64,000 nt of DNA. It comes from Amycolatopsis sp. 2-15. Its GTDB lineage: Bacteria; Actinomycetota; Actinomycetes; Mycobacteriales; Pseudonocardiaceae. The notes beneath the pieces are model-generated. The model was not told the DNA's origin. It ran no database searches and saw only the letters and a program-made list of their open reading frames with translations. Below are positions 1 through 23,035 of the stretch, piece by piece; position 1 is the first letter of the stretch; each line of letters opens with the position of its first letter. The stretch covers positions 7,844,001 to 7,908,000 of the forward strand of contig NZ_CP127294.1 of the NCBI RefSeq assembly GCF_030285625.1, written 5' to 3'. The position numbers and the translations under genes were made by a program.

Positions 1-695
1 TGGTCGCGGGCCGCGGGCGCCGTGGCGGCCCACAGCGCGGCGTTCGCGACGAGGCGGACGTCGACGGCTTCCGTCACGTACGGCGCGCCGCCCGGGAAGC
101 CGAAGGGCAGCCCTTCGGCCCGGCAGATGGCCGCGTAGGCGCCGATCACCGGCGGCAGGTTCATCGCGACGCCGTGGGTCGGGCCGACCACCAGCTGCGG
201 GCGCAGGATCGTCCAGCCGAAGCCGCGCTCGCCGGCCAGCGCGCGGAGGTGGTCCTCCTGCAGCCAGTAGAAGTTCTCGTGCTCGTCGCGCGGGTGCCGT
301 TCACGGGCCGGGATCCGGATGGAGTGGCGGTGCACGCCGTACGCTTTGGTGCCCTGCAGCAGGGTCACGTGCTGCAGGGGCGCGGCGGCCAGTGCGCCGG
401 TGAGTGCCTGCAGCATGCGCTCGTTGGTCCGCATCTGGTCCGGGTCGCGCCACCCGCGGACCAGGCCGGGCTTTTCGAAGACGGCGGTGTAGACGAGGTG
501 AGTCACGTCCGCGAACCGCCCGGCCACGCCGGCCACGGCGGCCGCGTCCGTGAGGTCGAGGGGCACGTGCTCGAAGGGCTCGTCGGTCTCCGGCGCGCGG
601 CGCGACACAGCCAGGACATCCCACCCGGCCTGGGCGAACGCCGTGACGCACGCCGCGCCGACCAGCCCGCTCGCTCCGGCGACGAGCACGGTCAT
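1..695 (-). CDS. PRISE-like NAD(P)-dependent short-chain reductase (3' end beyond window)
   Basis: The N-terminal 231 residues of an extended SDR are visible; the C-terminus lies off the left edge. The start MTVLVAGASGLVGAA carries the Rossmann glycine motif. LLQGTKAYGVH and NFYWLQEDHL resemble the progesterone 5-beta-reductase/iridoid synthase (PRISE) group, which reduces enones. The ATG overlaps the TGA of the thioesterase gene (ATGA), so this is the last visible gene of the long catabolic operon. An enone reductase fits ring catabolism of a terpenoid or steroid-like acid. The substrate is inference; the family is moderately sure. A generic NAD-dependent epimerase is the alternative. Confidence 0.8.
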   Translation of the reverse strand, partial: MTVLVAGASGLVGAACVTAFAQAGWDVLAVSRRAPETDEPFEHVPLDLTDAAAVAGVAGRFADVTHLVYTAVFEKPGLVRGWRDPDQMRTNERMLQALTGALAAAPLQHVTLLQGTKAYGVHRHSIRIPARERHPRDEHENFYWLQEDHLRALAGERGFGWTILRPQLVVGPTHGVAMNLPPVIGAYAAICRAEGLPFGFPGGAPYVTEAVDVRLVANAALWAATAPAARD

Positions 696-1612
696 CGCCG
701 GGGCTCCGGCATCGTGCGGTCCGCGGCCGTGCCGGCGAGCCAGCTGCCGGTGCCCCCGGTGGGACGGAGTAGCCCTTCCTGCATCACGGTCACCACGAGT
801 TCTCCGTTCTCGTCGTACATCCGGCCCGAGGCCAGGCCGCGCGCGCCGGCCATGACTTCGGCGCCCTGCTCGTAGCGCAGCCAGCGATCGGCGCGCGGCG
901 GACGGTGGAACCACATCGTGTGGTCGAGACTCACGCAGTCGAACTCGCCGTCGGCGTAGACCACGCCGAGCGGCAGGAGCGCGGTTTCGAGCAGCGTCAT
1001 GTCGGAGGCGTAGACCACGGCGGCCGCGTGCAGCAGCAGATCGTCCGGCAGCGGACCGTCAGCGCGGACGAGGGTGGTCTGCGCGCGGCGCGGCCGGTCG
1101 CGCAAGGTCGGATCCAGCGGTGGTGGCGGGTCCACGTAGCGCAGGTCGATCGGACGAGACCGAGTCCACAGTGGACTGAGCCGGTCGCGCCGGTCACCGA
1201 AGCGCTCTTCCCAGCGGGGCAGGGTTTCCGGGTCGATCGCCGCGGGGGTCGGGCCGGGATGGCGGGGGCCGGGCTCGGGGACCTGGAACGACGCGGTCGC
1301 GGTGAGGACGAGGGCGCCGTCCTGCCGCAGCTCGACGCCGCGGAGGTCGAAGCTGCGGCCCTCCTTGACCGTGGTCACGTGCAGTTCGATCGGGACTCCG
1401 CTCCGGCCGGGCCGGATGAAGCGCGTATGGAGGCTGTGCACCGGGCGGTCCGGTGTGACGGTCCGGCCCATGGCGACGAGTGCCTGCGCGGCGACTTCAC
1501 CGCCGAAGAGCCGGTGCAACGGGTCGGCCCCGCCAGGGTCGCGGAACACGCCCGGTGCCACGGGTTCCAGGTCGAGCCGCTGCAGGAGGTACTGCAGCGC
1601 CGGGCTCCTCAT
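692..1612 (-). CDS. tesB: Acyl-CoA thioesterase II (TesB-type double hot-dog)
   Basis: 306 residues, the usual TesB length. The N-terminal hot-dog contains LFGGEVAAQALVAM and HSLHTRFIRPG, and the C-terminal hot-dog contains SLDHTMWFHRP and YASDMTLLETALL, all typical of TesB. It hydrolyses medium or long acyl-CoA to free acid and CoA in the cytosol. The start at 1612 gives a 4-bp overlap with the preceding MaoC gene, and the stop overlaps the next gene by 4 bp. In this operon it may release dead-end CoA esters or regenerate CoA. Confidence 0.9.
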   Translation of the reverse strand: MRSPALQYLLQRLDLEPVAPGVFRDPGGADPLHRLFGGEVAAQALVAMGRTVTPDRPVHSLHTRFIRPGRSGVPIELHVTTVKEGRSFDLRGVELRQDGALVLTATASFQVPEPGPRHPGPTPAAIDPETLPRWEERFGDRRDRLSPLWTRSRPIDLRYVDPPPPLDPTLRDRPRRAQTTLVRADGPLPDDLLLHAAAVVYASDMTLLETALLPLGVVYADGEFDCVSLDHTMWFHRPPRADRWLRYEQGAEVMAGARGLASGRMYDENGELVVTVMQEGLLRPTGGTGSWLAGTAADRTMPEPRR

Positions 1613-2442
1613 ACCGGCCCCGTCGCGAGGAGGGTGGCTGTAGCCGAGACGACGGGCTCGCCGCCGGAGCCGGTGATCAGCTGGGTGACGTCGGTGAAGC
1701 GCAGCTCCCCCGCGCGGCCCGTTTTGGTGGTGCGGCCGGTGATCCAGTGCCGGGAACGCACGGTTTCGCCGGCGACGAGCGGGCGGTGGTAGGCGAACGT
1801 CTGTCCACCGTGGACGACGGGTCCGCTGCTGCGGGCCCAGCGCGCCGAATCGGCCACGGGGTCCGGGCGTGCGGAGCCCGGGCCGGATTGCCCGTCGGGG
1901 TACCAGCCGAGGGCGGGCAGTGCGAAGGCGAGCGTCGGGATGCCCGGGACATCGGCGAAACCCGCTTCGGCGGCGGCACGCGCGTCGTACCAGATCGGCG
2001 ACTTCGCGTCGACCGCGTGGGCGAGCCTGGTGAGCGCGCCGCGTTCGACGCACAGGCAGTGGTCTGCAACGGGCTCTTCGCCGGGCAGGGCCGGCAACGG
2101 TGGCCGGGAGCCGAGGTCCGCTTCGACGGTCAGGGCGACCGTGTCGCCGCAGGTGACGATGAGGTCGGCACCGCCGGCGCGGTCCTTCGCCGTGACGGTG
2201 ATGGGCGTGTCGAGGTAGACCGGGGCGCGGAAGCGGGCCCGGCAGGCGGTGAGGCCGGCCGGCCCGGCGTCGTCGGCGAGGTGCGCGAGGACGCACCCGA
2301 GTGTCAGCATGCCGTGGGCCACGATGCCGGCGAATCCGGCGTCGCGGGCCGCGGGCGCGTCGTGGTGGATGGTGTTGAAGTCCTGGGCCGCGCCGGAGTA
2401 GCGGACGAGGTCGGTGAGGCTGTAGCCCCACGATGCGGTCAC
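1609..2442 (-). CDS. Two-domain MaoC/hot-dog dehydratase with the hydratase half first
   Basis: 277 residues. Residues about 5-70 hold a MaoC hydratase signature: YSGAAQDFNTIHHD followed by GFAGIVAHGMLTLG, with the Asp and His expected for water addition to enoyl-CoA. Residues about 145-270 form a second hot-dog resembling the N-terminal dehydratase domain of MaoC-like proteins (PIWYDARAAAEAGF). This is the reverse of the common order, in which the non-catalytic half comes first. It overlaps both neighbours by 4 bp. The likely role is an enoyl-CoA hydratase step, perhaps with the two small hot-dog proteins encoded just upstream. Confidence 0.8.
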   Translation of the reverse strand: MTASWGYSLTDLVRYSGAAQDFNTIHHDAPAARDAGFAGIVAHGMLTLGCVLAHLADDAGPAGLTACRARFRAPVYLDTPITVTAKDRAGGADLIVTCGDTVALTVEADLGSRPPLPALPGEEPVADHCLCVERGALTRLAHAVDAKSPIWYDARAAAEAGFADVPGIPTLAFALPALGWYPDGQSGPGSARPDPVADSARWARSSGPVVHGGQTFAYHRPLVAGETVRSRHWITGRTTKTGRAGELRFTDVTQLITGSGGEPVVSATATLLATGPV

Positions 2443-2759
2443 GACGTGGCCTCCGGTTCGACGTGCGCCTCGACCGGTTCCGCGTCGCCGCAGCGCAGCC
2501 GCAGGTCCGGGCCGTCGACGGTGAGGGAGACCGTGGAGCCGACCGGCACCGGTGCCCGGAAGCGCAGGGTCACCGCGCCCGGGCTGCCGCCGGCCTGCAG
2601 GGCGTCACAGGCCAGGGCGAACAGCAGGGAGCCGTGCACGATCGGGACGCCGAAGCGGGTCGTCGCGGCGTAGGCGGGATCGAGGTGCAGCGGGTTGTGG
2701 TCGTCGACGACGTCGGCCCACGCGGAGATCAGCGCGGGGCCGAGCGGGAGCTCGCTCAT
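2439..2759 (-). CDS. Small MaoC-like hydratase subunit
   Basis: 106 residues, a single hot-dog. VVDDHNPLHLDPAYA and FGVPIVHGSLLFAL reproduce the MaoC catalytic Asp/His segment. Single-domain MaoC proteins of this size often work as hetero-oligomers with a partner hot-dog, as in the paired hydratases of actinobacterial steroid catabolism. The gene immediately upstream encodes a plausible partner. It overlaps its neighbours by 4 bp on both sides. Confidence 0.82.
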   Translation of the reverse strand: MSELPLGPALISAWADVVDDHNPLHLDPAYAATTRFGVPIVHGSLLFALACDALQAGGSPGAVTLRFRAPVPVGSTVSLTVDGPDLRLRCGDAEPVEAHVEPEATS

Positions 2760-3142
2760 GCGGCACCCGCCGGCCAGTCCACCAGGAACCGCACTGAGGC
2801 CACCGGTGCGCCGAGCGCGGAACGCAGGTCGGTTACGATCGCCAGCCGGCGGCGGCCGGAGCGTTCACCGAGCACAGTGGACGAGATACGCGCCTGCCAG
2901 CGGCCGTCGGCCGGCACCGGGCCCCGGGTCGTCTGCGAGATCTCCCGCAGCACGCCGCCCGGTGGCATCTCCCGGCCGCGGGTGTACGCGAGCCGTCCCA
3001 CCACGGACGCGAGTCCGGCCGGGGGTTCGGCGCCGGACCACCCGGTGACCGCGCAGTAGGCCGGCAGCAGCTCGGCGCCGACGTCGAGCGGGAGCCATTC
3101 GCCACCGGTGTCGAGGTCGGCGACGCTCAGCAGCGCGCTCAT
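2756..3142 (-). CDS. Small hot-dog-like protein, probable partner of MaoC subunit
   Basis: 128 residues from ATG at 3142, which overlaps the TGA of the enoyl-CoA hydratase gene. No catalytic MaoC motif is seen. The size, the position directly before a single-domain MaoC gene and segments such as LPAYCAVTGWSG and VGRLAYTRGREMPPGG suggest the non-catalytic N-terminal dehydratase-type hot-dog. This assignment rests mainly on context. I cannot exclude an unrelated conserved hypothetical protein. Confidence 0.65.
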   Translation of the reverse strand: MSALLSVADLDTGGEWLPLDVGAELLPAYCAVTGWSGAEPPAGLASVVGRLAYTRGREMPPGGVLREISQTTRGPVPADGRWQARISSTVLGERSGRRRLAIVTDLRSALGAPVASVRFLVDWPAGAA

Positions 3143-3885
3143 CGGAACTTCGCGACGGCCGCCTGCACCGCCGGCCCCGTCGCCGAGGAAGCCTGCGCCC
3201 ACGACTCGAACTCCAGCGTGGCCTCGAAACCACCCGTGCGCGCGAGTCCGACGGCCTTCTTGATGTCGCGCACCAACACGGGATCCGCGGCCGCCCACCG
3301 GTCCGCGTAGGCGATCGCCACGGCCACCGGATCGTCCGCCAGCTCCAACGCGAGCCCGGCCCGCACGGCCGCCTCGCCACTGAGCGCTCCCCCGTCGAGC
3401 AGCACCGCCAACGCCCGCTGGGACCCGAGCACGTCGACCAGGAACCACGTGCAGCCGCCACCCGGGTGCAGGCCGATCCGCGAGAACGTCGCGGCGAACG
3501 ACGCACGGGGCCCGGCGATCCGGACGTCGCATGCCAGCGCGAGGTTCAGCCCGGCGCCGACGGCCGCACCCTGCACCGCGGCGACCGTCGGGATCGCCAG
3601 CCCGCGCAGCCGCAGGAAGCTGTTGTAGATCGTGTGCAGATCACGCCGGATCTGCGCCACCTCGCGGCCCGTCTCACCGAACACTGCCGGCAGGTCGGCT
3701 CCGGCGCAGAACGCCTTGCCCGCACCGGTGACGACCAGCGCCCGGGCGTCCGCGTCGGCCGCCACCGTGGCGAGCGCGTCCGCGAGGTCCTGGCACATCC
3801 GCGCGTCGAGGCAGTTGCGCCGATCGGGGGCGGCCAGCGTCAGCGACCACCGGCCGTCCTTGTTCTCCAGTTCGACCTTGCTCAT
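3139..3885 (-). CDS. Enoyl-CoA hydratase/isomerase family protein
   Basis: 248 residues from ATG 3885 (ATGA overlap with the acyl-CoA dehydrogenase stop). The crotonase fold is clear: GKAFCAGADLPAV (oxyanion-hole and CoA-binding loop), VAAVQGAAVGAGLNLALACD and FSRIGLHPGGG. The first catalytic Glu of classical enoyl-CoA hydratase is replaced (GAGLNLAL), so isomerase or another crotonase chemistry is possible. It sits between an acyl-CoA dehydrogenase and hot-dog hydratases in the same transcript, consistent with a beta-oxidation-like role. Confidence 0.85.
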   Translation of the reverse strand: MSKVELENKDGRWSLTLAAPDRRNCLDARMCQDLADALATVAADADARALVVTGAGKAFCAGADLPAVFGETGREVAQIRRDLHTIYNSFLRLRGLAIPTVAAVQGAAVGAGLNLALACDVRIAGPRASFAATFSRIGLHPGGGCTWFLVDVLGSQRALAVLLDGGALSGEAAVRAGLALELADDPVAVAIAYADRWAAADPVLVRDIKKAVGLARTGGFEATLEFESWAQASSATGPAVQAAVAKFR

Positions 3886-6038
3886 CGTCCGTCCTCCGCT
3901 CCGGAGAGGTCTTCGGTGACCCAGTCCCACACCGCGTCTGGGCCAAGCCGGGCGAACCGTTCGCCCAGCGCGCGTGCCCAGTACCGCTCGCCGCCGAACT
4001 CGTCGCGCCACGACCAGAGCCGGCGGGTGGCGAGGTGCAGCGGATGTTCGCGCGTCACGCCCATGGCTCCGTGCAGCTGGTGTGCGCCGCGGGCGACCTC
4101 GGTGGCCGCGGCCGCCGTGATCACCACCGCCGCCGCCACGCGGTCGAGTGCCACCTCGCCACGACTCGCCGCGACAGCCGAAGCGACCGCCGTGCGCGCC
4201 AGCGTCAGCTGCGACTCCATCCGCGCGAGCGTCGCGCCGACGGCCTGGAACTTGATGAGCGGACGGCCGAACTGTTCACGCACCGTCACGTGCGCCACGG
4301 TGTGCGCGACCGCCGTTTCGAGCGCGCCCACCATCGCCGCGGCTTGCAGGAGCGCACCGATCGCGGCGAGAAACTCCGGAACCGCGCCGACCTGCGAGGC
4401 CGGCACGTTCCCGAACCGTACGAGATCACGCGGTTCACCCGCGAGGTTCGCCCCCGGCTCGATTTCGAGGCCCGGCGCGTCCGCCTCGACGACGACCAGA
4501 ACCTGCGCCCCGTCCGGCGTCCGCGCCGGCACGACGAACCGCTCGACGACGCCGGCCCACCGCACTCGGCTCGCCGCGCCCGAGAGGACCCCGTCGGCCA
4601 CGACCAGGTCGTCCCCGGCGCGAGAGAGCACCACGGTCGCCGGGCCCGGCGGCAGCGCCCCGGCCACGAGCCGCGCCCACGCCGTTTCCAGCAGCGGCAG
4701 CGAAACCGTGTGCCGCCCGCATGCCTCGACGAGTTCGGCCAGCTCGGCCAGCCCTCCCCCGGAACCGCCGAGGCCCTCCGGAGTGCCGACTCCGGGCCAG
4801 CCCAGCTCGGACACTGTCGTCCACACCGGAGGCAGGGTGGCGCCGGGATCTCCGCCGTGACCGCTCAGCACGTCGTCGGCGACGGCGCGCAGCCCCGACT
4901 CGTCAGCCGGGCGGCCCGCGGCAGCGGCCGAGCGGGCGATGATCGTGCGCAGCACTTCCGTCGTGCCGCCGCGGATCGTGAACCCGGGCGCGGCCAGCAC
5001 GCCCTGGGCAAGCAGGCCCGCTTCGCCCTCGGCGAAGGGATCGGGTTCGAGGTCGAGGACCGCGCGGGCCAGTTCGTTGACGTCGCCTTCGAAGATGGTG
5101 CCGAGATCCTTCAACACCGCCGCCTGTTGCACCGGCGCCGCGCCGCCGTCGATCGCCACCGCGACGCGCCACGCGAGCTGCCGCAGGGTCGCGAGCCGGG
5201 CGAGCGCCTCGCCGATGCGGACCGCGGCGTCCGGCGTGGGCGCCGTGCTGTGGGCGACGACGGCCGCGAGCAGCGGGTAGGTGCTCAGCACGCGTTCCAT
5301 GCCGCCGCGCTCGAACGCGAGCTGCTCGGTGACCTGCTGCCACCCGTTGCCGGGCACGCCGAGCACGTGGTCGGCGGGCACGAACACGTCGTCGAACACG
5401 ACCTCGTTGAAGTGGTGGTCGCCGCGCAGGTCGAAGATCGGCCGGATGTCCACGCCCGCGGACGTGAGGTCGACGATGAACTCGGTGAGCCCTTCGTGCT
5501 TCGAACCACTCGCGTCGGTGCGCGCGAGCACGTACGCGTGGGTCGCGCGGTGGGCGTGGCTGGTCCAGATCTTGCGCCCGCGCACCCGCCAGCCGCCGAG
5601 CACCGGCCCGGCCACGGTGTGCACGGACGCGAGGTCCGAGCCGGACTCGGTCTCGCTCATGCCCAGGCAGAACGACACGTCGCCGCGGATGATCAGCGGC
5701 AGGTAGGTCTTCTGCAGCTCGGGTGAGCCGTAGCGGAGGATGGCCGGGCCGATCTGCCGGTCACCCATCCAGTGCGCGGCGACCGGCGCGCCGGCGCGCA
5801 GCAGCTCTTCGGTCACCACCAGCCGCGCGAGGTTCGACCGGGCGCCACCGCCGAACTCGGCCGGCCACGTCATGCCGACCCAACCGCGCGCGGCCAGCTC
5901 CCGGCTGAACTCCGGGTCGTGCCCGCGCAGCCAGGCATCGCACTTCGGCGTGAACCGGCCCTGTTCCTCCCGTTCCCGGGCAAACGCCCGGACCTGCGCC
6001 CGCAGTGTCGTCAAATCCGTCGTCAGATCCTCGGTCAA
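3882..6038 (-). CDS. Tandem (double) acyl-CoA dehydrogenase fusion protein
   Basis: 718 residues, about twice the normal length. Residues about 5-375 form one acyl-CoA dehydrogenase: GWVGMTWPAEFGG, FCLGMSETESGSDLASV (flavin/substrate loop), RKIWTSHA, GGTTEVLRTIIARS. Residues about 380-700 form a second, more diverged copy ending VTVREQFGRPLIKFQAV and QLHGAMGVTREHPLHL. Actinobacterial steroid catabolism uses alpha2beta2 dehydrogenases made from two different FadE subunits; here both halves are on one chain. The probable reaction is flavin-dependent alpha,beta-desaturation of a bulky acyl-CoA. The start overlaps the CoA-transferase stop by 4 bp. Confidence 0.88.
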   Translation of the reverse strand: MTEDLTTDLTTLRAQVRAFAREREEQGRFTPKCDAWLRGHDPEFSRELAARGWVGMTWPAEFGGGARSNLARLVVTEELLRAGAPVAAHWMGDRQIGPAILRYGSPELQKTYLPLIIRGDVSFCLGMSETESGSDLASVHTVAGPVLGGWRVRGRKIWTSHAHRATHAYVLARTDASGSKHEGLTEFIVDLTSAGVDIRPIFDLRGDHHFNEVVFDDVFVPADHVLGVPGNGWQQVTEQLAFERGGMERVLSTYPLLAAVVAHSTAPTPDAAVRIGEALARLATLRQLAWRVAVAIDGGAAPVQQAAVLKDLGTIFEGDVNELARAVLDLEPDPFAEGEAGLLAQGVLAAPGFTIRGGTTEVLRTIIARSAAAAGRPADESGLRAVADDVLSGHGGDPGATLPPVWTTVSELGWPGVGTPEGLGGSGGGLAELAELVEACGRHTVSLPLLETAWARLVAGALPPGPATVVLSRAGDDLVVADGVLSGAASRVRWAGVVERFVVPARTPDGAQVLVVVEADAPGLEIEPGANLAGEPRDLVRFGNVPASQVGAVPEFLAAIGALLQAAAMVGALETAVAHTVAHVTVREQFGRPLIKFQAVGATLARMESQLTLARTAVASAVAASRGEVALDRVAAAVVITAAAATEVARGAHQLHGAMGVTREHPLHLATRRLWSWRDEFGGERYWARALGERFARLGPDAVWDWVTEDLSGAEDGR

Positions 6039-16197: not shown

Positions 16198-16210
16198 GGT
16201 CGGGCTCCCA

Positions 16211-17284
16211 TCATTCGTCGGCGGCAGCGGTGGCTGCCGGAGAGGCTTCGGCCGCCGGGTGGCGGCGGCGCACCAGCAGGCGCCCCAGCCCCGCGAAACC
16301 GTTGGGCGACACCAACAGCACGAGGGCGAGGACGCCGCCGAGGACGATCTTGTCGACATCACCGCCGAACGAGGCGAGCTGCTGCTGCGCGGTGATCAGC
16401 GCGGCCCCGATGAGCGGGCCGAGCAGCTGGCGGCGACCCGGCAGGATCACGGCGGTGAGCATGAACAGCAGGAACGACGCCGACAGCAGGTCGGGGCTGA
16501 CGTAGCTGCGCTGGAACGCGTACAGCCAGCCGGCGAGCGCGCTGATCGGTGCCGACACGACGAACACCAGCACCCGCGTGCGGCGCACGTCGACACCCAT
16601 CGTGGTCGCCAGGCCCGGGTTCATCTGGGTCATGAGCGCGTTGGCCCCGAGCCGGGACCGGCGGAACCGCGCGATGAAGAAGATCACGACCACGAGCAGG
16701 ACATAGGCGATCGGCCAGATGTCCACGTCGGTCCGGGCGACGTAGCTGCCGCCGATCGCCGGCAGCGTCAGCAACGGGACGCCGACGATGCCGTCGGACC
16801 CGCCGAGACCGCCCACATTGGACACCACGGTGAGCCCGATGATCGCGGTCGCGTACGTCACTAGCGAGAACACGAACTCCCGCGTGCGCAACGTCGCCAG
16901 GCCCACGAGCAGCGCCAGCAGAGCCGCTATCGCCAGGGACACCAGCAGCGATGGCAGCGGCCCCCAGCCGGATTTCACCGTGAAGTACGCCGTGGCGTAG
17001 GCGCCGGCCGCCCAGAAGAGCGTGTGCCCGAGGCTCACCTCGCCGAGATAGGACAGCACGACGTCGGCGCCATAGGACATCATCGCGAAGATCGCCACGA
17101 GCACACACGTCGTGTAGATACGGGTGGAGCCGCCGAGCAGGGTGGGCAGCAGGAACCCCGCCACGGCCAGCACCAGCCAGCCGGTGACCCGGGTTCCCGG
17201 TCCCGGCCGCCGCGAGCGTCCCGCGGCGCCGTCGGAGGTCGTGGTCCCCGCCGGGGCTCGCCCGGCGCGCACTGCGTTCGTCAT
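16211..17284 (-). CDS. livM: Branched-chain-type ABC transporter permease LivM
   Basis: 357 residues, about ten hydrophobic segments after a 30-residue polar Arg-rich N-terminus. LSYLGEVSLGHTLFWAAGAY and the GGSDGIVGVPLL loop are LivM-like. It forms the inner-membrane channel with LivH. In actinomycetes, Liv-type systems linked to CoA-ligase genes often import aromatic or alicyclic acids rather than amino acids (inference here). ATG 17284 overlaps the livH stop. Confidence 0.9.
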   Translation of the reverse strand: MTNAVRAGRAPAGTTTSDGAAGRSRRPGPGTRVTGWLVLAVAGFLLPTLLGGSTRIYTTCVLVAIFAMMSYGADVVLSYLGEVSLGHTLFWAAGAYATAYFTVKSGWGPLPSLLVSLAIAALLALLVGLATLRTREFVFSLVTYATAIIGLTVVSNVGGLGGSDGIVGVPLLTLPAIGGSYVARTDVDIWPIAYVLLVVVIFFIARFRRSRLGANALMTQMNPGLATTMGVDVRRTRVLVFVVSAPISALAGWLYAFQRSYVSPDLLSASFLLFMLTAVILPGRRQLLGPLIGAALITAQQQLASFGGDVDKIVLGGVLALVLLVSPNGFAGLGRLLVRRRHPAAEASPAATAAADE

Positions 17285-18132
17285 CGGGCGGTCAACCCCT
17301 GAGGTCGGACGATCAGGACCACGAGCAGCACGGCGAAAGCCGCGGCCGTGGAGTAGGCCGGCGAGACGTAGGCGCCGAAGAAGGCGGTGAACACGCCGAG
17401 CCCCAGGCCCACGAACAGGCCACCGGTCAGGTAGCCGATGCCGGCGAGCACCACCACGAGGAACGTGATCACCAGCTGGTCGAACCCGATCGAGGTGAGG
17501 ATAGGGCTGCGCGGTGCCACCACCGCGCCGGCGAGCGCGGCGCACGCGGCGGAGAACACGAACACGCCCAGGTACACCTTGGCCGCGTCGATGCCGTACA
17601 GCTGCGCCAGCTTCGGATCTTCCGCGACACCCCGTACGAGGCGCCCGATGTTGGTACGCCCGAGCACGAACCACGTGACGCCGTAGAGCGCGAAGGCGAG
17701 GATCACGATGAGCAGATCCTGCCCGGTGAAGCGCGCCGAGCCGATCGACATCCCCGCGTTCTGGAACGGGCTGTCGATGACCTGCGGGTTGCCGCCGAAC
17801 AGCAGCGAACCGCCGCCTTCGAGCAGGTAGCCGAACGCGAGCGTCACCAGCATCAGGCTGACGATGTTCTGGTCGAGCGTGAGCCGCCGCATCAGCAGCT
17901 GCATGATCCCGCCGAGCACCGCGACCGCGACCACGGCGACCGGGATCGCCGCCAGGTAGGGCAGCCCTGCCTTCGTGATCACCAGGAAGGTGAGGAACGC
18001 GCCGATCATGTACAGCTGGCCGTGGGCGAAGTTCACCAGGCGAGCGGCGCCGAGCAGCACGGTCCAGCCGACCGCGAGCAGGGCGTAGCCGGCGCCGAGC
18101 GCGAGTCCGTTGACGAGTTGCGCGAGGATCAC
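17281..18132 (-). CDS. livH: Branched-chain-type ABC transporter permease LivH
   Basis: 283 residues beginning at GTG 18132, overlapping the ATPase stop (GTGA). LVNGLALGAGYALLAVGWT and ARLVNFAHGQLYMIGAF are hallmark LivH sequences. Eight or so membrane segments are predicted by eye. It pairs with LivM to import the pathway substrate. Confidence 0.92.
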   Translation of the reverse strand: MILAQLVNGLALGAGYALLAVGWTVLLGAARLVNFAHGQLYMIGAFLTFLVITKAGLPYLAAIPVAVVAVAVLGGIMQLLMRRLTLDQNIVSLMLVTLAFGYLLEGGGSLLFGGNPQVIDSPFQNAGMSIGSARFTGQDLLIVILAFALYGVTWFVLGRTNIGRLVRGVAEDPKLAQLYGIDAAKVYLGVFVFSAACAALAGAVVAPRSPILTSIGFDQLVITFLVVVLAGIGYLTGGLFVGLGLGVFTAFFGAYVSPAYSTAAAFAVLLVVLIVRPQGLTAR

Positions 18133-19649
18133 GACCGGCCCAGCCTTCCCAGGTAGGCGGAGACGATCCGGTCGTCGTCCCGCATCTCGGTGCACGGGCC
18201 CGCACCGACGACCTGCCCCTGCTCCAGCAGATACAGCCGGTCCGCGACCTCGAGCGTCGCGCGCACGTTCTGTTCGACCAGCAGCACCGACAGCCCACTG
18301 GTGACGAGCTCCCGGATGTGTTCGAGCACCTCGACGACGAGCCGCGGCGCGAGCCCGACGGACGGCTCGTCGAGGATCAGCAGCCGCGGCGCCGCGCGCA
18401 GCGCCCGCCCGATGGCCACCATCTGCCGCTCGCCGCCGCTCAGCGTCGAGCACCGTGCGTGGGCCCGGGCGGGCAGTTGCGGGAACACGTCGTAGACGTC
18501 CGAGACCTCGTAACGCCGGCCGGAGGCTTCGCGCGGCGGCCGGACCATGCGGAGGTTCTCCTCCACCGTCATGCGCTCGAACACGCTCTTGCCCTCGGGC
18601 ACGAGCACCACGCCGAGCTTCGTGCGCTTGTGCGCCGGCAAGGTGGCGATGTCGTGGCCGCCGAGGCGGATCGCGCCCGTGGCGCTCACCTTGCCCCGGG
18701 ACCACCCGGCGACGGCGTTGACCAGGGTGCTCTTGCCCGCGCCGTTGGCACCGGCCACGGCGACGAGCTCGCCGTCGGAGACGGTCAGGTCCACTCCGGA
18801 CAGCGCGGTGCTGCGCCCGTAGCGCACGCGCAGGTCGTCGACTTCCAGCAGCGCCGTCATGCCGCCCTGCCCAGGTACGCCTCGAGTTACCGCGGGGTCC
18901 CGCTGCACTTGTTCCGGCTCGCCGTAGGCGATCGGCTCACCGCGATCGATCACCAGGAGCCGGTTGACGATCTCCATCACCAGGTCCATGTGGTGCTCGA
19001 TGAGCACTACGGCGAGGCCGCGGTCACGCAGCTGCAGCAACAGTTCCGCGAGGTTGTGCATGTCCTCGCCGCCGACGCCGGCGGCCGGTTCGTCGACGAG
19101 CAGCACCTTCGCGCCGGCGCCGTAGGCGAACACGATCGACAGGCACCGCTGCAGCCCGTACGGGATGTTGTCGGGGTACATCCCGTGGTAGCGGGCCGGG
19201 ATCCCGAAGTCCGTGAGCAGGTCCGCGGCCGCGGCGCGGGTGCGGGACCGCTGCTTGGCTTCGCGCCACGGCGTGAACACGCTGCCGGCGAGCGGCACCC
19301 CGTTCTCCACCGCGAACGTGGCGGCCGCGTTGTCCAGCACAGACAGTCCACTGTAGAAGGAGTTCTGCTGGAAGGTGCGGCGCAGGCCGCGCCGGGAGAG
19401 CCGGTGCGTGGGCACGGAATCGACGTTCGAGCCGTACAGCTCGACGGTGCCGGTGCGGCGCACGGTGTTGGTCACCGCCGCGAAGCTCGAGCTCTTGCCC
19501 GCGCCGTTGGGCCCGATGATGCCGAGGATCTCACCGTCGGACACCGTCCAGGACACGTCGTTCAGCGCCTGCAAGCTGCCGTAGCGCACGCAGAGGTCCG
19601 CCACCCGCAGTGCGGGGACTTCCGAGTCCGATGAGGACATCGGCCTCAC
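18129..19649 (-). CDS. livG: LivG and LivF ABC ATPases, joined in one frame by an apparent 1-bp insertion
   Basis: As read, 506 residues with two complete ABC ATPase modules. The first (LivG-like) has IIGPNGAGKSS and VDEPAAGV; the second (LivF-like) has VAGANGAGKST, LSGGERQM and LDEPSVGLAP. Near the join, dropping one T of the pair at 18887-18888 lets LivG end naturally as AV-LEAYLGRAA with a TGA at 18857-18859. That TGA would overlap the LivF ATG at 18860 as ATGA, matching the other junctions in the operon. So the ancestral genes are livG 18857-19649 and livF 18129-18860. The fusion is either a real mutation or a sequencing error. The first start could also be ATG 19640. Confidence 0.87.
   Translation of the reverse strand: MRPMSSSDSEVPALRVADLCVRYGSLQALNDVSWTVSDGEILGIIGPNGAGKSSSFAAVTNTVRRTGTVELYGSNVDSVPTHRLSRRGLRRTFQQNSFYSGLSVLDNAAATFAVENGVPLAGSVFTPWREAKQRSRTRAAAADLLTDFGIPARYHGMYPDNIPYGLQRCLSIVFAYGAGAKVLLVDEPAAGVGGEDMHNLAELLLQLRDRGLAVVLIEHHMDLVMEIVNRLLVIDRGEPIAYGEPEQVQRDPAVTRGVPGQGGMTALLEVDDLRVRYGRSTALSGVDLTVSDGELVAVAGANGAGKSTLVNAVAGWSRGKVSATGAIRLGGHDIATLPAHKRTKLGVVLVPEGKSVFERMTVEENLRMVRPPREASGRRYEVSDVYDVFPQLPARAHARCSTLSGGERQMVAIGRALRAAPRLLILDEPSVGLAPRLVVEVLEHIRELVTSGLSVLLVEQNVRATLEVADRLYLLEQGQVVGAGPCTEMRDDDRIVSAYLGRLGRS
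18887..18888 (-). other. Inferred frameshift site joining livG and livF
   Basis: A TT pair (AA on the coding strand) where a single T would restore a typical LivG C-terminus and a 4-bp ATGA overlap with livF. The restored ending matches the family pattern, whereas the in-frame reading (TRGVPGQGG) does not. Confidence 0.7.
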
Positions 19650-20848
19650 TGCTCCCAGATGGCGTCGGGGATCGGGATCTCGTCGAGCACGGCCACCTTG
19701 CCGCCCTTGACGGTGAAGGCGTACACCTTCGTCTTGAGCTGGCCCTTGGCGGTGAAAGAGACGTCGCCGAGGACGGTGCCGGTGAAGCTCTGGCCGTGGA
19801 TCGCGGCCGCGACCTTTTCGCGGTCGGTGCCGCCGGCCTTATCGACCGCTTTCGCCCACACGTCCACGCTTTCGGCCCCGAGCGCGGCGTACTTGTCGGG
19901 CAGCTGCCCGGTCTTCGCGGAGAAGGCCTTCACGAACTCGGTGTTGACCTGGTTGGCGTTGAAGGGCGCCACATCGGGGAAGTACAGGTCCGCCGACAGC
20001 AGCCCGTCGACCTTCGCGCCACCGGCCAGGCCGACGACCTTCGGCGAAACCGTGCCCAGCGCGGCGAAGTGGGGCGCCGGCATGCCGGATTCCGCGTACT
20101 GGTCCGCGAGCGCCGGCATGCCGGAGGACTCGGCGGCGTTGGCGGAGAAGACCACGTCGGGGTTGGCGCCGGCCAGCTGCGACAGCGGCACGCGGAAATC
20201 GGTCCCGGCGTAGTCGAACTTCTGCTGGCTGACCACCTGGATACCTTCGGCCTGCAGCTGCTTGCCGAGGAACGAGCCGGCGTCGTTGCCGTAGGCGTCA
20301 TTCTCCAGCAGCATCGCCACGCGCTTGGCCTTGAGGTCCTTCGCGAGGTACTGGGCCGCGGCGTAGGCGCCGGCCGCGTTGCCCGCGTTCATCCGCACCG
20401 CGTCGGGATCCGCGTGGCCGATGATCGACGCGTTCTGCGGAATCGAGGTGACGTTGAGGACGCCTCCGCGCACCAGTACCGGCTGGATGGCGAGCGTGAC
20501 CGGGCTGTTCCAGCCGCCCATCACGACCGCGACCCCGTCGTTGACCATCGAGGTGGCGGCGCTGACCCCGGTCGCCGGGTCGCTCTTGTCGTCCTTCGAA
20601 ACGATCTGCAGCTGCCTGCCGCTCACGCCCCCGGCCTTGTTGATCAGGTCGGCCTTGGTGGTGATCGCGTCGAGCACGTCCTTGCCGTTGGGGCCGGCGG
20701 GGCCGCTCAGCGGCACGATCACACCGATCTTGATCGGACCGGACCCGCTGTCGCCCGCGCTGGGTGAGGACGAGCTCGCGCCCGTGTTCGCACAGCCGGC
20801 CAGCAGGACCGCCAGGCCCAGCACGGGGAACAACCTTGTCCGTTTCAC
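19646..20848 (-). CDS. LivK-type periplasmic substrate-binding lipoprotein
   Basis: 400 residues from GTG 20848, chosen because GGAGG lies 5 bases before it and the product begins with a basic signal peptide (VKRTRLFPVLGLAVLLAGC) whose LAGC is a lipobox. An in-frame ATG at 20881 has no ribosome site and lies inside an operator. The mature protein has the type I fold: IKIGVIVPLSGPAGPNGKDV, VVMGGWNSPVTLAIQPV and KRVAMLLENDAYGND. It captures the substrate for the Liv importer. It is the first gene of the minus-strand catabolic operon. Confidence 0.9.
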   Translation of the reverse strand: MKRTRLFPVLGLAVLLAGCANTGASSSSPSAGDSGSGPIKIGVIVPLSGPAGPNGKDVLDAITTKADLINKAGGVSGRQLQIVSKDDKSDPATGVSAATSMVNDGVAVVMGGWNSPVTLAIQPVLVRGGVLNVTSIPQNASIIGHADPDAVRMNAGNAAGAYAAAQYLAKDLKAKRVAMLLENDAYGNDAGSFLGKQLQAEGIQVVSQQKFDYAGTDFRVPLSQLAGANPDVVFSANAAESSGMPALADQYAESGMPAPHFAALGTVSPKVVGLAGGAKVDGLLSADLYFPDVAPFNANQVNTEFVKAFSAKTGQLPDKYAALGAESVDVWAKAVDKAGGTDREKVAAAIHGQSFTGTVLGDVSFTAKGQLKTKVYAFTVKGGKVAVLDEIPIPDAIWEQ

Positions 20849-20877
20849 GCCAGCCTCCAGCTTCGACCTCGTTGTCG

Positions 20878-20895: not shown

Positions 20896-20902
20896 AGAGC
20901 AG

Positions 20903-20931
20903 AAGGTATGCGGCGGATAATCTGGCGTCAA
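20903..20931 (-). promoter_or_regulatory. Predicted promoter of the minus-strand catabolic operon
   Basis: On the minus strand, TTGACG (20926-20931) is followed after 17 bases by TACCTT (20903-20908). These fit actinobacterial sigma-70-like -35 and TAnnnT -10 elements. The start would fall near 20896, giving a leader of about 48 nt before GTG 20848. Confidence 0.6.
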
Positions 20932-20959
20932 GAGCCATTTAGTCGGCGGTTATGGCTCT
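20931..20959. repeat. 8-bp inverted repeat AGAGCCAT / ATGGCTCT in the divergent intergenic region
   Basis: Perfect arms at 20931-20938 and 20952-20959 with a 13-bp spacer, between the two divergent promoters. It differs from the ACATACG operator and could bind a second regulator or an activator. No candidate protein can be assigned. Confidence 0.5.
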
Positions 20960-20988
20960 ACATAAGGAAAAATGATCATCTTTGGCGG

Positions 20989-21018
20989 TTGACCGACCTA
21001 CATACGCACGCGTATGTT
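20989..21018 (+). promoter_or_regulatory. Predicted promoter of the plus-strand enoyl-CoA hydratase operon
   Basis: TTGACC (20989-20994), 18-bp spacer, TATGTT (21013-21018). The spacer and -10 are covered by operator 2, the classic geometry for repression. Confidence 0.6.
21000..21017. promoter_or_regulatory. Operator 2: perfect 7-bp-arm palindrome
   Basis: ACATACGCACGCGTATGT, arms ACATACG and CGTATGT around CACG. It lies between the -35 and -10 of the plus-strand promoter. It is the best copy of the shared motif and the likely high-affinity site of the TetR regulator encoded at 13572-14204. Confidence 0.75.
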
Positions 21019-21027
21019 TTGCCTCGG

Positions 21028-21045
21028 ACATACGCCGGGGTACGT
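21028..21045. promoter_or_regulatory. Operator 3: degenerate copy of the same palindrome
   Basis: ACATACGCCGGGGTACGT keeps the left arm exactly and five of seven right-arm positions. It begins 28 bp after operator 2, just past the predicted start of the plus-strand transcript. Confidence 0.5.
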
Positions 21046-21093
21046 CTCTCGGCACTCCTGTTCCCGACTGCGTTCCCCAGTGAGGAGACCCAG

Positions 21094-21873
21094 GTGGCCG
21101 ACGACGACCAGGCGGTGCGCTACGACGTGGGCGACCACGTCGCGATGATCACGATCGACCGCCCGTCCGCGCGCAACGCACTGAGCACCGACGTCCTGCG
21201 CGGACTGTGCGCCGGGCTCGACCGCGCGGAGGCGGACGACGAGATCCGCGCCGTCGTCCTCACCGGCGGAGAGAAGATCTTCGCCTCCGGCGCCGACATC
21301 CGGGAGCTGCGCACCACCTCACCCGCCGGCTACCTGCAGTCCGAACGCCTCGCCGCGTGGGCGCGGTTCGGGCGCTTCCCCAAGCCTTCGATCGCGGCCG
21401 TCGCCGGATACGCGCTCGGCGGCGGCTGCGAACTGGCGATGTCGTGCGATTTCATCGTCGCGGCCGACTCGGCGACGTTCGGGCAGCCGGAGATCCGGCT
21501 CGGCATCCTGCCCGGCGCGGGCGGCACCCAACGCTGGGCCCGCGTGGCCGGCCGCTTTCGCGCGGCGGAGCTCGTGCTGGCCGCACGCACGGTCGATGCC
21601 TGGACTGCTCGCGAATACGGGCTGGTGGCCCGGGTCGTGCCCGCGGAGCGGGTCGTCGCGGCCGGTGTCGCGCTGGCCGGCGAGGTCGCGGCGTTCGGCC
21701 CGGTCGCGACGCGCCTGTCCAAGGCGGCCGTGCGCGCGTCGGAGGAGCTGCCGCTGGCCGGCGGCCTGGAACACGAGCGGGCGCTGCTCGGCACGCTTCT
21801 GTCCACAGAGGACCATTTCGAGGGAATCGACGCCTTTCTGGAGAAGCGCTCGGCGCGCTTCACCGGACGATGA
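21094..21873 (+). CDS. Enoyl-CoA hydratase (crotonase) with both catalytic glutamates
   Basis: 259 residues from GTG 21094, preceded by GAGGAG at good spacing. KIFASGADIREL is the oxyanion-hole loop. GGGCELAMSCD and FGQPEIRLGILPG carry the two catalytic Glu residues of true enoyl-CoA hydratases, unlike the crotonase at 3139-3885. It heads a three-gene plus-strand operon divergent from the importer operon and sharing its operators, so it probably hydrates an intermediate of the same pathway. Confidence 0.92.
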   Translation: MADDDQAVRYDVGDHVAMITIDRPSARNALSTDVLRGLCAGLDRAEADDEIRAVVLTGGEKIFASGADIRELRTTSPAGYLQSERLAAWARFGRFPKPSIAAVAGYALGGGCELAMSCDFIVAADSATFGQPEIRLGILPGAGGTQRWARVAGRFRAAELVLAARTVDAWTAREYGLVARVVPAERVVAAGVALAGEVAAFGPVATRLSKAAVRASEELPLAGGLEHERALLGTLLSTEDHFEGIDAFLEKRSARFTGR

Positions 21874-21887
21874 GGAGGCCGGCACCG

Positions 21888-22544
21888 ATGAGCGAGTTCG
21901 CGACCCTGGAGTTCGAAGACCCCGGTGCCGGTGGGCGACTGGGCGACGAAGTCCGCGCCGCGCTGGCCCGCGAGGTCCGGGGCTGGCGCCGCGCGACGCC
22001 GGGCGCGGTCCTGCTGCGGGTGTACGGCGACGCGTGGCACCACGCCCCGGACGTGGCGTCGGCCCGGCTCGACCGCGACCGGGTCGATGCCGGGTACCAG
22101 TCGCTCGTCAAGGATCTGTTCGGCCTGGCGTACCCGGTCGTCGTCGCGCTCGACGGGCAGGTGAGCGGGTTCGGGCTGGCGCTCGCGCTCGCCGCCGACG
22201 TCCGGCTCGCCACCGCCCGCACGACGCTGTCGGTGGGCGACCTCAAGGCCGCCGCGCTGCTGGGTGGCACCGGCTGGCTGGTCGGCCGGACCTGCGGCAC
22301 CGGGACGTTCGCCCAGCTGGCTTGGACCGGCGAGACGCTGTCGGCCGACGAGGCGGCCCGCCGCGGCCTCCTCGGACCCGGCGACGCCGAGGCGGCGCGC
22401 GCGCTGGCACAGCGGCTCGCGGCCGACCCGGCCGGCTCGTCGGCGCTCAAGCGCGCGCTCAGCACGCGCCAGCGAAGTGAGCTCGAAACGGTGCTGGACT
22501 ACGAGGCCTGGCTGGCCGACGTCGCCGCGGGCGGCGCCGGATGA
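21888..22544 (+). CDS. Degenerate crotonase-family protein
   Basis: 218 residues from ATG 21888 (GGAGG nine bases upstream); an in-frame ATG at 21870 overlapping the previous stop is possible. The fold is recognisable in YPVVVALDGQVSGFGLALALAAD and GGTGWLVG. The position of the first catalytic Glu is Ala and the second is Asp (VGDLKAAALLGG). Crotonases without both Glu usually do not hydrate enoyl-CoA; the protein may be an isomerase, a ring-cleaving hydrolase or a subunit. The next gene overlaps it by 4 bp. Confidence 0.78.
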   Translation: MSEFATLEFEDPGAGGRLGDEVRAALAREVRGWRRATPGAVLLRVYGDAWHHAPDVASARLDRDRVDAGYQSLVKDLFGLAYPVVVALDGQVSGFGLALALAADVRLATARTTLSVGDLKAAALLGGTGWLVGRTCGTGTFAQLAWTGETLSADEAARRGLLGPGDAEAARALAQRLAADPAGSSALKRALSTRQRSELETVLDYEAWLADVAAGGAG

Positions 22545-23035
22545 GCGAGGGAGAACTCTTTCCCGAACCCGGCTGGGCCGGTGCGTCGGGCCACGTCGCA
22601 CTGCCTGAGGCGGCCCCCGGCTCGGTCGCCGACCGGCTGCTCGTCGCGGAGACCATCGCGCGCTACGGCTGGGCCTACGACGAGCGAGACCGCGCGGCGC
22701 TGGCCGCCTGTTTCACCCCCGACGGCGTGTGGCAGGGCATCATCATGGGCCGCGACCACGTCGAGCCGATCCACGGAGCCGACGCCATCGCCGCCTGGCT
22801 CGCCGGCTTCTGGCCGGCCCAGATCGACCAGCGGCGCCACGTCTTCAGCAACATCGTGGTCGGCGAACCCGACGGCGGCGAAGTGCTCGCCTATGCCTAC
22901 CTCGTCCTGCTGAGCAGCCACGACCGCACGACCACCCCGGTGTCCGCCGGTCCGTATCGCTTCACGCTGCGCCGGACCGACCGCGGCCTGTGGCGCATCG
23001 CGCGGCTGGCAGCCGGGTTCGACGCGCCGTTCTGA
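22541..23035 (+). CDS. NTF2-like/SnoaL-fold protein
   Basis: 164 residues; ATG 22541 overlaps the preceding TGA. VAETIARYGWAYDERDRAALAACFTPDGVW is the characteristic start of the SnoaL/ketosteroid-isomerase-like fold, followed by RHVFSNIVV and the beta strands ending GLWRIARLAAGF. Such proteins act as isomerases, dehydratases or small-substrate hydrolases. Co-transcription with crotonases in a putative ring-degradation regulon suggests an isomerase or dehydratase. The reaction is unknown. Confidence 0.82.
   Translation: MSEGELFPEPGWAGASGHVALPEAAPGSVADRLLVAETIARYGWAYDERDRAALAACFTPDGVWQGIIMGRDHVEPIHGADAIAAWLAGFWPAQIDQRRHVFSNIVVGEPDGGEVLAYAYLVLLSSHDRTTTPVSAGPYRFTLRRTDRGLWRIARLAAGFDAPF

What the first reader, a model, noticed from the sequence alone, without database searches (positions are those of the whole stretch)
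1..23035. Undescribed CoA-dependent catabolic regulon for an imported cyclic acid
About 23 kb in two divergent operons combine a Liv-type importer, a CoA ligase, a CaiB CoA transferase, acyl-CoA dehydrogenases (one a tandem fusion), three crotonases, three hot-dog/MaoC proteins, HAD, thiolase, an IpdAB/GctAB-like pair, a cyclase-family hydrolase, a dienoyl-CoA-reductase-like SDR, a PRISE-like enone reductase, an NTF2-fold protein and a TetR. Seventeen or so junctions are 4-bp overlaps. This combination is not a pathway I recognise. The ring-hydrolase-like pair, cyclase, NTF2 protein and enone reductase point to an alicyclic, terpenoid or steroid-fragment carboxylate.
Basis: partly seen in the sequence, partly recalled or inferred. 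Interest (0 to 1): 0.85.

Follow-up and report, generated by a model that had tools for sequence, protein, structure and literature searches.

The report
Undescribed regulon for degrading ring acids
A soil actinobacterium carries a self-contained, single-switch set of about 24 genes that probably imports an unknown, likely ring-shaped organic acid and breaks it down as coenzyme-A thioesters; the same core recurs in scattered, distantly related bacteria and fits no pathway we could find.

Summary
In detail: two divergent operons (minus strand from 20824 to 375 bp beyond the window start; plus strand 21094-23035) with 16-17 four-base overlaps and the stated families. It is one regulon: three ACATAC-N6-GTATGT palindromes in the divergent promoter are the only sites with at most one mismatch in the 10.05-Mb genome, and the site recurs at the operon start in the six other type-A loci that include it. 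One inference fails: the GctAB/IpdAB-like pair is not an IpdAB-type ring hydrolase. In 15 of 15 cluster pairs the beta chain keeps the CoA-transferase glutamate and IpdA's catalytic glutamate is absent; six IpdAB-type controls show the reverse. Ring opening is better assigned to the cyclase-family hydrolase. Four sister clusters couple the same core to luciferase-like monooxygenases plus an SMP-30 lactonase instead. paaA and paaK lie elsewhere in the genome; no BadI passes its cut-off. Substrate unproven; a cyclic or ring-derived carboxylate is most likely.

The parts
1..695 (-). g00 PRISE/epimerase-like NAD(P) reductase (356 aa; ends at window -375); accessory
   Evidence: PF22917 42 bits over cut-off, PF01370; in 6 of 7 type-A loci that reach this place
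692..1612 (-). g01 TesB-type acyl-CoA thioesterase; accessory
   Evidence: PF02551, PF20789; 5 of 7 loci that reach this place
1609..2442 (-). g02 two-domain MaoC-like hydratase; accessory
   Evidence: PF13452, PF01575; 4 of 7 loci
2439..2759 (-). g03 MaoC-like hydratase, possible active partner of g04
   Evidence: PF01575; 6 of 7 loci
2756..3142 (-). g04 hot-dog protein, MaoC/HadA type, possible partner of g03 (pairing is inference)
3139..3885 (-). g05 PaaG-like crotonase lacking both hydratase glutamates (N114, F134)
   Evidence: PRK05870 model 318 bits, cut-off 285; best PDB match 4fzw_C, 1,2-epoxyphenylacetyl-CoA isomerase; Asn and Phe in 11 of 11 rows
3882..6038 (-). g06 tandem (alpha-beta fused) acyl-CoA dehydrogenase; N half with presumed catalytic Glu243, C half degenerate beta type
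   Evidence: N half to Tcur3483, C half to Tcur3481; PimC and IpdE2 models, both under cut-off; Glu in 13 of 13 rows
6035..6793 (-). g07 GctB-like CoA-transferase beta subunit, presumed catalytic Glu49 in E-A-G
   Evidence: AibB and GctB matches; Glu in 15 of 15 cluster pairs
6790..7611 (-). g08 GctA-like CoA-transferase alpha subunit; Leu where IpdA has its catalytic Glu
   Evidence: PF01144; 1poi_A best; tree
7608..8420 (-). g09 SDR, perhaps dienoyl-CoA-reductase-like, without Tyr-x3-Lys (Ser164, Arg168)
   Evidence: PF13561; PRK07576 and PRK07677 models, below cut-off among 220 SDR models
8417..9484 (-). g10 CaiB-type class III CoA-transferase, Asp154; absent from 2 of 9 type-A loci
   Evidence: PF02515 259 bits
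9514..11007 (-). g11 PaaH-like 3-hydroxyacyl-CoA dehydrogenase, HFFNP motif
   Evidence: PF02737, PF00725; TIGR02279 252 bits, under cut-off 669
11004..12182 (-). g12 thiolase with Cys89, His346, Cys376
   Evidence: PF00108, PF02803; TIGR01930 430 bits over cut-off
12235..13575 (-). g13 PaaK-family acyl-CoA ligase, not the genome's PaaK
   Evidence: 4r1l 266 bits; TIGR02155 275 bits, cut-off 646; a ligase over the cut-off is at 9.890 Mb
13572..14204 (-). g14 TetR regulator, presumed to bind the operator
   Evidence: PF17932, PF00440; 49-99% identical in the 7 other type-A loci that reach it
14201..15022 (-). g15 cyclase-family metal-dependent hydrolase (HVGTHVDGLAH), proposed ring opener
   Evidence: PF04199; H68, T71, H72, D74, H78 invariant in 8 rows; matches 5ibz and isatin hydrolase
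15019..16197 (-). g16 acyl-CoA dehydrogenase, Glu364 in YEGT
   Evidence: Glu in 12 of 12 rows
16211..17284 (-). g17 LivM-type permease (start 17284 inferred)
   Evidence: PF02653; start
17281..18132 (-). g18 LivH-type permease
   Evidence: PF02653
18129..19640 (-). g19 LivG-LivF ATPases, one 503-aa frame here, two genes in the 4 other genomes that span it
   Evidence: PF00005 twice
19646..20824 (-). g20 Liv-type substrate-binding protein
   Evidence: PF13458 221 bits
20878..20895 (.). operator-like palindrome CCATACTTCAGCGTATGT (1 mismatch)
21000..21017 (.). operator-like palindrome ACATACGCACGCGTATGT (perfect)
21028..21045 (.). operator-like palindrome ACATACGCCGGGGTACGT (1 mismatch)
21094..21873 (+). 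g21 PaaF-like enoyl-CoA hydratase with both catalytic Glu (113, 133)
   Evidence: PRK09674 280 bits, cut-off 371; both Glu in 9 of 9 rows
21888..22544 (+). g22 shortened crotonase without the catalytic glutamates (Ala98; Asp118 at the second place in 3 of 6 rows)
   Evidence: PF00378
22541..23035 (+). g23 NTF2-like SnoaL_4 protein; accessory (4 of 6 loci)
   Evidence: PF13577

Best explanation
A self-contained TetR-controlled catabolic regulon for an imported cyclic (or ring-derived) carboxylic acid. Proposed order: the Liv importer takes up the acid; the PaaK-like ligase g13 makes the CoA thioester; acyl-CoA dehydrogenase g16, hydratase g21, PaaG-like crotonase g05, the SDR g09 and 3-hydroxyacyl-CoA dehydrogenase g11 adjust the ring to a cyclic 1,3-dicarbonyl; the cyclase-family hydrolase g15 opens it by retro-Claisen hydrolysis, as dihydrophloroglucinol cyclohydrolase does; the resulting dicarboxylate has its CoA placed on the other carboxyl by the GctAB-type transferase g07/g08 (where present, helped by CaiB g10); the fused alpha-beta acyl-CoA dehydrogenase g06 starts a second beta-oxidation round, ending with thiolase g12 in acetyl-CoA and a short dicarboxylyl- or acyl-CoA. 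A ligand, most simply a pathway acyl-CoA, releases the TetR g14 from ACATAC-N6-GTATGT. Shown by sequence: gene content, conservation, active-site residues, operator sites. Inferred: order of steps, ring opening by g15, TetR-operator pairing, substrate.
For: Conserved gene set and order in eight other loci, with unrelated flanks outside the genus. Operator unique to this promoter in the genome and present at the operon start in all seven type-A loci that include it. CoA-transferase glutamate in 15 of 15 pairs, opposite signature in six IpdAB-type controls, as the IpdAB paper describes (Glu54 beta in GCT, Gly57 beta in IpdAB). Expected catalytic residues in g06, g10, g11, g12, g16, g21 and the metal motif in g15. 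Precedent for C-C ring opening by the cyclase family. Sister clusters have, in place of the cyclase, luciferase-like monooxygenases, flavin reductase and SMP-30 lactonase, conserved in 4 of 4, which fits alternative ring-opening front ends for one core.
Against: No substrate, expression or enzyme data. Cyclase-family members also hydrolyse amides (isatin hydrolase and kynurenine formamidase are among its matches), so g15 need not cleave C-C. Type-B clusters carry a second, class-I AMP ligase besides the PaaK-like one, so g13 may act after ring opening, not first. The Liv importer is missing next to the Micromonospora core and CaiB from two loci. The dienoyl-reductase label of g09 is weak. In the Frankiales locus the TetR is only 49% identical and sits elsewhere. 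g14-operator binding is untested.
Confidence: 0.56

Rival explanations
1. Same catabolic regulon, but the acid is not opened at a saturated ring: it is a branched, side-chain or aromatic (arylalkanoic) acid, and the cyclase hydrolyses an amide, lactone or activated ester.
For: Cyclase matches include isatin hydrolase and kynurenine formamidase; the ligase also resembles 2-hydroxyisobutyryl-CoA synthetase (225 bits); homologues of PaaK, PaaF, PaaG, PaaH and a thiolase.
Against: No oxygenase was found in the block; the steroid-type alpha-beta acyl-CoA dehydrogenase and the sister monooxygenase-lactonase clusters favour ring substrates.
Confidence: 0.28
2. Steroid or bile-acid ring-fragment catabolism with g07/g08 as an IpdAB-type hydrolase.
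For: g08 has weak similarity to IpdA (63 bits); second half of g06 matches the IpdE2 model (59 bits, cut-off 450); steroid-type dehydrogenase relatives.
Against: Active-site signature is opposite to IpdAB; g08 lies outside the IpdA clade (100/100); no FadD3-type ligase or IpdC-type protein among the Pfam matches of the block.
Confidence: 0.06
3. A biosynthetic supply cluster (unusual acyl-CoA starter or extender unit for a polyketide).
For: Such enzyme sets occur in supply clusters (recalled).
Against: Importer, hydrolase and thiolase in one operon; no protein over 811 aa was called in the window or the 19 kb upstream, so no large modular synthase nearby; outside the genus the flanks are unrelated.
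Confidence: 0.04
4. Variant of the phenylacetate (paa) or cyclohexanecarboxylate (bad/ali, chcpca) pathways.
For: Similar logic and homologous families.
Against: paaA and paaK over their cut-offs lie at 9.887-9.891 Mb; no BadI over cut-off in the genome; ligase is PaaK-type, AliB model 154 bits against cut-off 575.
Confidence: 0.06

Closest known systems
KstR2/HIP regulon with IpdAB and EchA20 (steroid C/D rings; PMC5380842, passages)
   Same: CoA regulon under one repressor (TetR family, recalled) with a GctAB-family pair, a crotonase, SDRs, a thiolase and acyl-CoA dehydrogenases
   Different: pair here has CoA-transferase residues; ligase PaaK-type; cyclase present; no IpdC- or FadD3-type protein seen in the block
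chcpca cluster of Rhodococcus aetherivorans BCP1 (cyclohexane- and cyclopentanecarboxylate; PMC5906575, passages)
   Same: TetR, ligase, two acyl-CoA dehydrogenases, hydratase, SDR-type dehydrogenase
   Different: BadI, BadH and AliA homologues, and no CoA-transferase, thiolase or cyclase among its eight listed genes
phenylacetate (paa) catabolon
   Same: homologues of PaaK, PaaF, PaaG, PaaH and the thiolase
   Different: no epoxidase or PaaZ found in the block; has acyl-CoA dehydrogenases, cyclase and transferases; the genome has paaA and paaK elsewhere
thn pathway of anaerobic naphthalene degradation, ThnP and ThnO (PMC11659651, abstract and section 4.4)
   Same: a CoA-transferase moves CoA between the two carboxyls of a cyclic dicarboxylate before an acyl-CoA dehydrogenase
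   Different: ThnP belongs to the Cat1 subgroup and lacks the usual glutamate; here a two-chain Gct-type enzyme with it
dihydrophloroglucinol cyclohydrolase pathway (PMC10470551, passages)
   Same: cyclase-family protein as retro-Claisen ring opener
   Different: substrate is a free cyclic diketone and no acyl-CoA dehydrogenases are described in the passages seen; sequence relation to g15 not tested
camphor pathway (CAM plasmid; PMC4097962, PMC6352141, passages)
   Same: type-B sister clusters also have flavin reductase, luciferase-like monooxygenases and a CoA ligase
   Different: resemblance by family only; the window's type A has no monooxygenase

Membership tests
IpdAB (COCHEA-CoA ring hydrolase) | beta subunit lacks the CoA-transferase Glu (Gly in its place) | tested here: not met
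   Glu in 15 of 15 cluster pairs; Gly in 6 of 6 IpdAB-type controls; feature described in PMC5380842
IpdAB (COCHEA-CoA ring hydrolase) | alpha-subunit catalytic Glu (Glu105, number and role recalled; place read from the Glu/Ala difference between 6co6 and 6coj) | tested here: not met
   Leu, Met, Phe or Tyr in 15 of 15; Glu in 6 of 6 controls
IpdAB (COCHEA-CoA ring hydrolase) | groups with IpdA in a tree | tested here: not met
   IpdA reference and six controls one clade 100/100; types A, B, C another 100/99 (the tool warned of long branches, among them one that joins types A-C with P_L011)
Class I CoA-transferase, Gct type | alpha and beta chains of the family, adjacent | tested here: met
   the beta chain has no Pfam hit, only PDB matches
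Class I CoA-transferase, Gct type | catalytic E-x-G glutamate in the beta chain | tested here: met
Class I CoA-transferase, Gct type | CoA-transfer activity | not testable with these tools
   needs purified protein
paa catabolon | ring epoxidase PaaA in the cluster | tested here: not met
   one match in the genome, at 9.887 Mb; none among block genes
paa catabolon | PaaZ in the cluster | tested here: not met
   no aldehyde-dehydrogenase-type protein among the Pfam matches of the block genes; PaaZ itself was not searched genome-wide
paa catabolon | PaaK over the curated cut-off | tested here: not met
   g13 275 bits, cut-off 646
bad/ali or chcpca cyclohexanecarboxylate pathway | BadI ring hydrolase | tested here: not met
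   36 matches in the genome, none over 467.6 bits; g21 98 bits, g05 62 bits. The cut-off was set for BadI; the BCP1 homologue itself was not compared
bad/ali or chcpca cyclohexanecarboxylate pathway | AliA-type ligase and AliB dehydrogenase | tested here: not met
   g13 is PaaK-type; g16 154 bits to TIGR03207, cut-off 575
Cyclase family PF04199 | HxGTHxD...H metal motif (recalled as the family's) | tested here: met
   H68, T71, H72, D74, H78 invariant in 8 of 8 aligned
Dihydrophloroglucinol cyclohydrolase | retro-Claisen cleavage of a cyclic 1,3-diketone | not testable with these tools
   family precedent only
TetR-controlled regulon | shared operator confined to the cluster and conserved with it | tested here: met
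   binding itself untested

The most novel reading that the evidence does not exclude
The block is one version of an unrecognised modular CoA catabolon: a fixed core (PaaK-like ligase, acyl-CoA dehydrogenase, thiolase, 3-hydroxyacyl-CoA dehydrogenase, GctAB transferase, fused alpha-beta acyl-CoA dehydrogenase) that different actinobacteria couple to interchangeable ring-opening front ends: a hydrolytic cyclase (type A, window), luciferase-type (presumably Baeyer-Villiger) monooxygenases plus SMP-30 lactonase and an HMG-CoA-lyase-like enzyme (type B), and P450/Rieske oxygenases plus cyclase (type C, partial core), so that several kinds of cyclic acids drain into one route in which a CoA-transferase swaps the thioester to the other end of a ring-opened dicarboxylate.
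Probability: 0.35. Interest if true: 0.7.

Novelty: new variant of a known kind. Interest (0 to 1): 0.52.

Why it matters
Aerobic breakdown of cyclic acids in actinobacteria is poorly charted, and GctAB/IpdAB-like genes are easily read as steroid-type ring hydrolases. The two-residue test used here (beta-chain Glu, alpha-chain Glu) separates the two chemistries from sequence alone. The unique operator gives a direct handle: the regulon's boundaries are known, so an inducer screen on one promoter can name the substrate.

Tried and rejected
IpdAB-type ring hydrolase: rejected on residues and tree. Steroid HIP regulon, paa, bad/ali/chcpca: rejected as memberships (see tests). Molybdenum-hydroxylase/ALDH/CoxG operon upstream (L008; next to the block in the window's genome, G483 and G479) as part of the regulon: not kept, because it has no operator (one match with 3 mismatches, chance mean 0.93) and was not matched beside the block in the other lineages. 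Camphor CamF1/F2 as GctAB relatives: not shown; the plasmid search for g08 listed 30 of 132 records, best identity 36.7%, none named as a CAM plasmid. A plasmid search with g06 (30 of 298 records listed) led to a two-gene acyl-CoA dehydrogenase module (the Embleya stretch had no annotation) but no characterised pathway. Jasmonate, naphthenic-acid and monoterpene literature searches gave no matching cluster in their listings. The palindrome was read from an alignment of six promoters, so its conservation there is partly circular; the genome-wide count and the Frankiales locus were not part of that alignment. Genome-wide at up to two mismatches there are 17 sites against 24 for the reversed control, so weaker sites mean nothing. 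One type-B stretch (G601) has a one-mismatch site away from the core. Of seven paralogue loci fetched as IpdAB controls one, L072, did not group with IpdA and had neither signature (Phe and Glu); it is not counted among the six controls. g04 fold search: families not listed there are not excluded.
Full report
WHERE IT LIES. The window is bases 7,844,001-7,908,000 of a single-contig genome of 10,050,063 bases.

CONSERVATION. With g08 as bait I found clusters in other genomes. Nine loci including the window carry the arrangement (type A): two same-genus genomes G483 (74-99% identity per gene) and G479, G313 (another family, 46-86%), G599 (same family, another genus, 61-88%), Micromonospora tulbaghiae L029, Streptomyces sp. 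ODS25 L030, a Frankiales MAG L031 and Nonomuraea harbinensis L032. L030-L032 are cut by the fetched stretch or contig, so counts are over the loci that reach each gene: g07, g08, g09, g11 in 9 of 9; g05 and g06 in 8 of 8; g12, g13, g14, g15, g16 in 8 of 8; g21 and g22 in 6 of 6; CaiB g10 in 7 of 9; g00, g03, g04 in 6 of 7; g01 in 5 of 7; g02 in 4 of 7; g23 in 4 of 6. Gene order agrees except that the TetR of L031 (49% identical) lies before the dehydrogenase. The Liv genes are absent beside the Micromonospora core. Flanks are shared within the genus in part (G483, G479) and differ in the other lineages (Pfam of some). The block is rare and patchy: matches in 3 of 80 genomes of the genus (own included), 4 of 394 of the class (own, G313 and two type C), 6 of 220 of the family (own, one type A, four type B), 1 of 296 of a phylum sample (own only). 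In the class, family and phylum samples only part of the first-look candidates were scored, so these are lower bounds. A pattern scan of 84,980 species genomes gave four loci (not exhaustive). The protein search reported 300 relatives of g08 at E below 1e-30 among the 7,997 candidates scored; 120 were listed.

REGULON. Aligning the promoter of six type-A loci showed ACATAC-N6-GTATGT palindromes. The window has three with at most one mismatch, all between 20878 and 21045. In the whole genome these are the only three with at most one mismatch; at up to two mismatches the 17 sites do not exceed the 24 of the control. Sites with at most one mismatch occur in the divergent promoter of 6 of the 6 type-A loci that include it (window, G483, G479, G313, G599, L029) and, in L031, between the TetR and the dehydrogenase gene; L030 and L032 do not reach this place. 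Of six type-B and type-C stretches five have none at two mismatches and one (G601) has a site away from the core. So the controlled unit is this block alone, and the upstream molybdenum-hydroxylase operon is not part of it. That g14 is the repressor is inferred from position and co-conservation.

THE GctAB/IpdAB PAIR. PDB relatives of g08 are glutaconate CoA-transferase alpha, IpdA and AibA; of g07, AibB and GctB. In an alignment with these chains (no IpdB reference was in it), 15 of 15 cluster pairs (nine type A, four B, two C; some nearly identical) have Glu in the E-A-G motif of the beta chain at the GctB glutamate / AibB cysteine column, and Leu, Met, Phe or Tyr where IpdA has its catalytic glutamate. 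Of seven further paralogue pairs fetched as controls, the six that fall into the IpdA clade show Glu in the alpha chain and Gly in the beta chain; the seventh, L072, is of neither kind. Another paralogue set (21 rows, two of them one pair) has His or Asn in the alpha chain and Glu in the beta chain. The difference is the one stated in the IpdAB paper (Glu54 beta in GCT, Gly57 beta in IpdAB; PMC5380842, passages). The tree puts types A, B and C in one clade (100/99) apart from IpdA (100/100), with warnings about long branches. The pair should therefore move CoA between carboxylates.

SISTER CLUSTERS. Type B (G554, G617, G696, G601) shares the ligase, dehydrogenase g16, thiolase, HAD, GctAB and fused dehydrogenase (50-68%) in 4 of 4 and g05 and g21 in 3 of 4 each; no g15 relative was matched in the 40 kb around. 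Its front end is RibBA, flavin reductase, three luciferase-like monooxygenases, an SMP-30/gluconolactonase, a class-I AMP ligase, an HMGL-like enzyme and an aldo/keto reductase (Pfam on G554 only). Eleven of the 13 front-end and linker proteins compared have counterparts of 55-94% identity in the other three genomes (the SDR and the aldo/keto reductase in two of three; in G617 the HMGL gene lies apart). In type A only the SDR matched over 30% identity; in type C only the SDR, AMP ligase and TetR, at 30-33% (filter E 1e-10, 60% coverage). That the luciferase-like enzymes are Baeyer-Villiger monooxygenases is inference. Type C (G070, G092) has GctAB (45-52%) and a cyclase (31-34%); G070 also has P450s, a Rieske oxygenase and a class-I ligase (Pfam on G070 only) and the fused dehydrogenase (45%), which was not matched in G092. 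One core with exchangeable ring-opening front ends is the boldest reading I put forward; it is inference.

MECHANISM. The model in the best explanation rests on the expected residues of the other enzymes, on the invariant metal motif of g15, and on the published retro-Claisen ring opening by a cyclase-family enzyme (PMC10470551, passages). A point against the order proposed: type B has a second ligase, so the PaaK-like ligase could act after ring opening. Precedent for CoA transfer within a cyclic dicarboxylate is ThnP (PMC11659651, abstract and section 4.4), which belongs to another subgroup and lacks the glutamate. The halves of the fused dehydrogenase match the alpha and beta chains Tcur3483 and Tcur3481 (called steroid enzymes from recall); on Rhodococcus, Pseudonocardia and Sulfitobacter plasmids related dehydrogenases are neighbouring genes next to a gene annotated as CoA transferase.

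KNOWN OR NOT. The genome keeps paaA and paaK at 9.887-9.891 Mb and has no BadI over cut-off. The chcpca cluster (PMC5906575, passages) is the nearest described actinobacterial system I found and differs in ligase type and in lacking transferases, thiolase and cyclase. Ten searches of the open-licence library showed no description of this block in the listings, which were capped (for instance 15 of 423); most subscription papers are not in that library.

VERDICT.

Noticed in passing
window 18129-19640: LivG and LivF form one continuous 503-aa frame here but are two overlapping genes in G483, G479, G313 and G599; window and G483 differ by one base in length over this stretch. A true fusion or an assembly error.
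   Followed up: partly
L008:9815-18385 (window -9185 to -615): Molybdenum hydroxylase (three subunits), aldehyde dehydrogenase, CoxG and IclR lie just upstream in the window's genome, G483 and G479 (a UbiD-type decarboxylase further out in two of them), with an extra Liv importer inserted in G483; not under the block's operator.
   Followed up: partly
window 24709-26520: g27 fuses a DUF4432 domain to an Amidohydro_2 domain (603 aa); its relative in G483 was called as two genes at the edge of the fetched stretch.
   Followed up: no
L063:13519-17165, L065:11944-16256, L066:11947-16088: Plasmid-borne module of two adjacent acyl-CoA dehydrogenases next to a gene annotated CoA transferase, with an enoyl-CoA hydratase in two of the three (TRAP transporter beside it in Sulfitobacter), related to the halves of g06; function unknown to me.
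   Followed up: partly
L055:1775-13578: Type-B front end: RibBA beside flavin reductase and luciferase-like monooxygenases with SMP-30 lactonase, conserved in four genomes; looks like its own undescribed oxygenase pathway.
   Followed up: partly
G000:C1:9634175-9634954 and other genomes of the genus (for example L012-L018): A second GctAB pair (beta motif YESGC), frequent in the genus, forms its own clade apart from the window's pair and from IpdAB.
   Followed up: no
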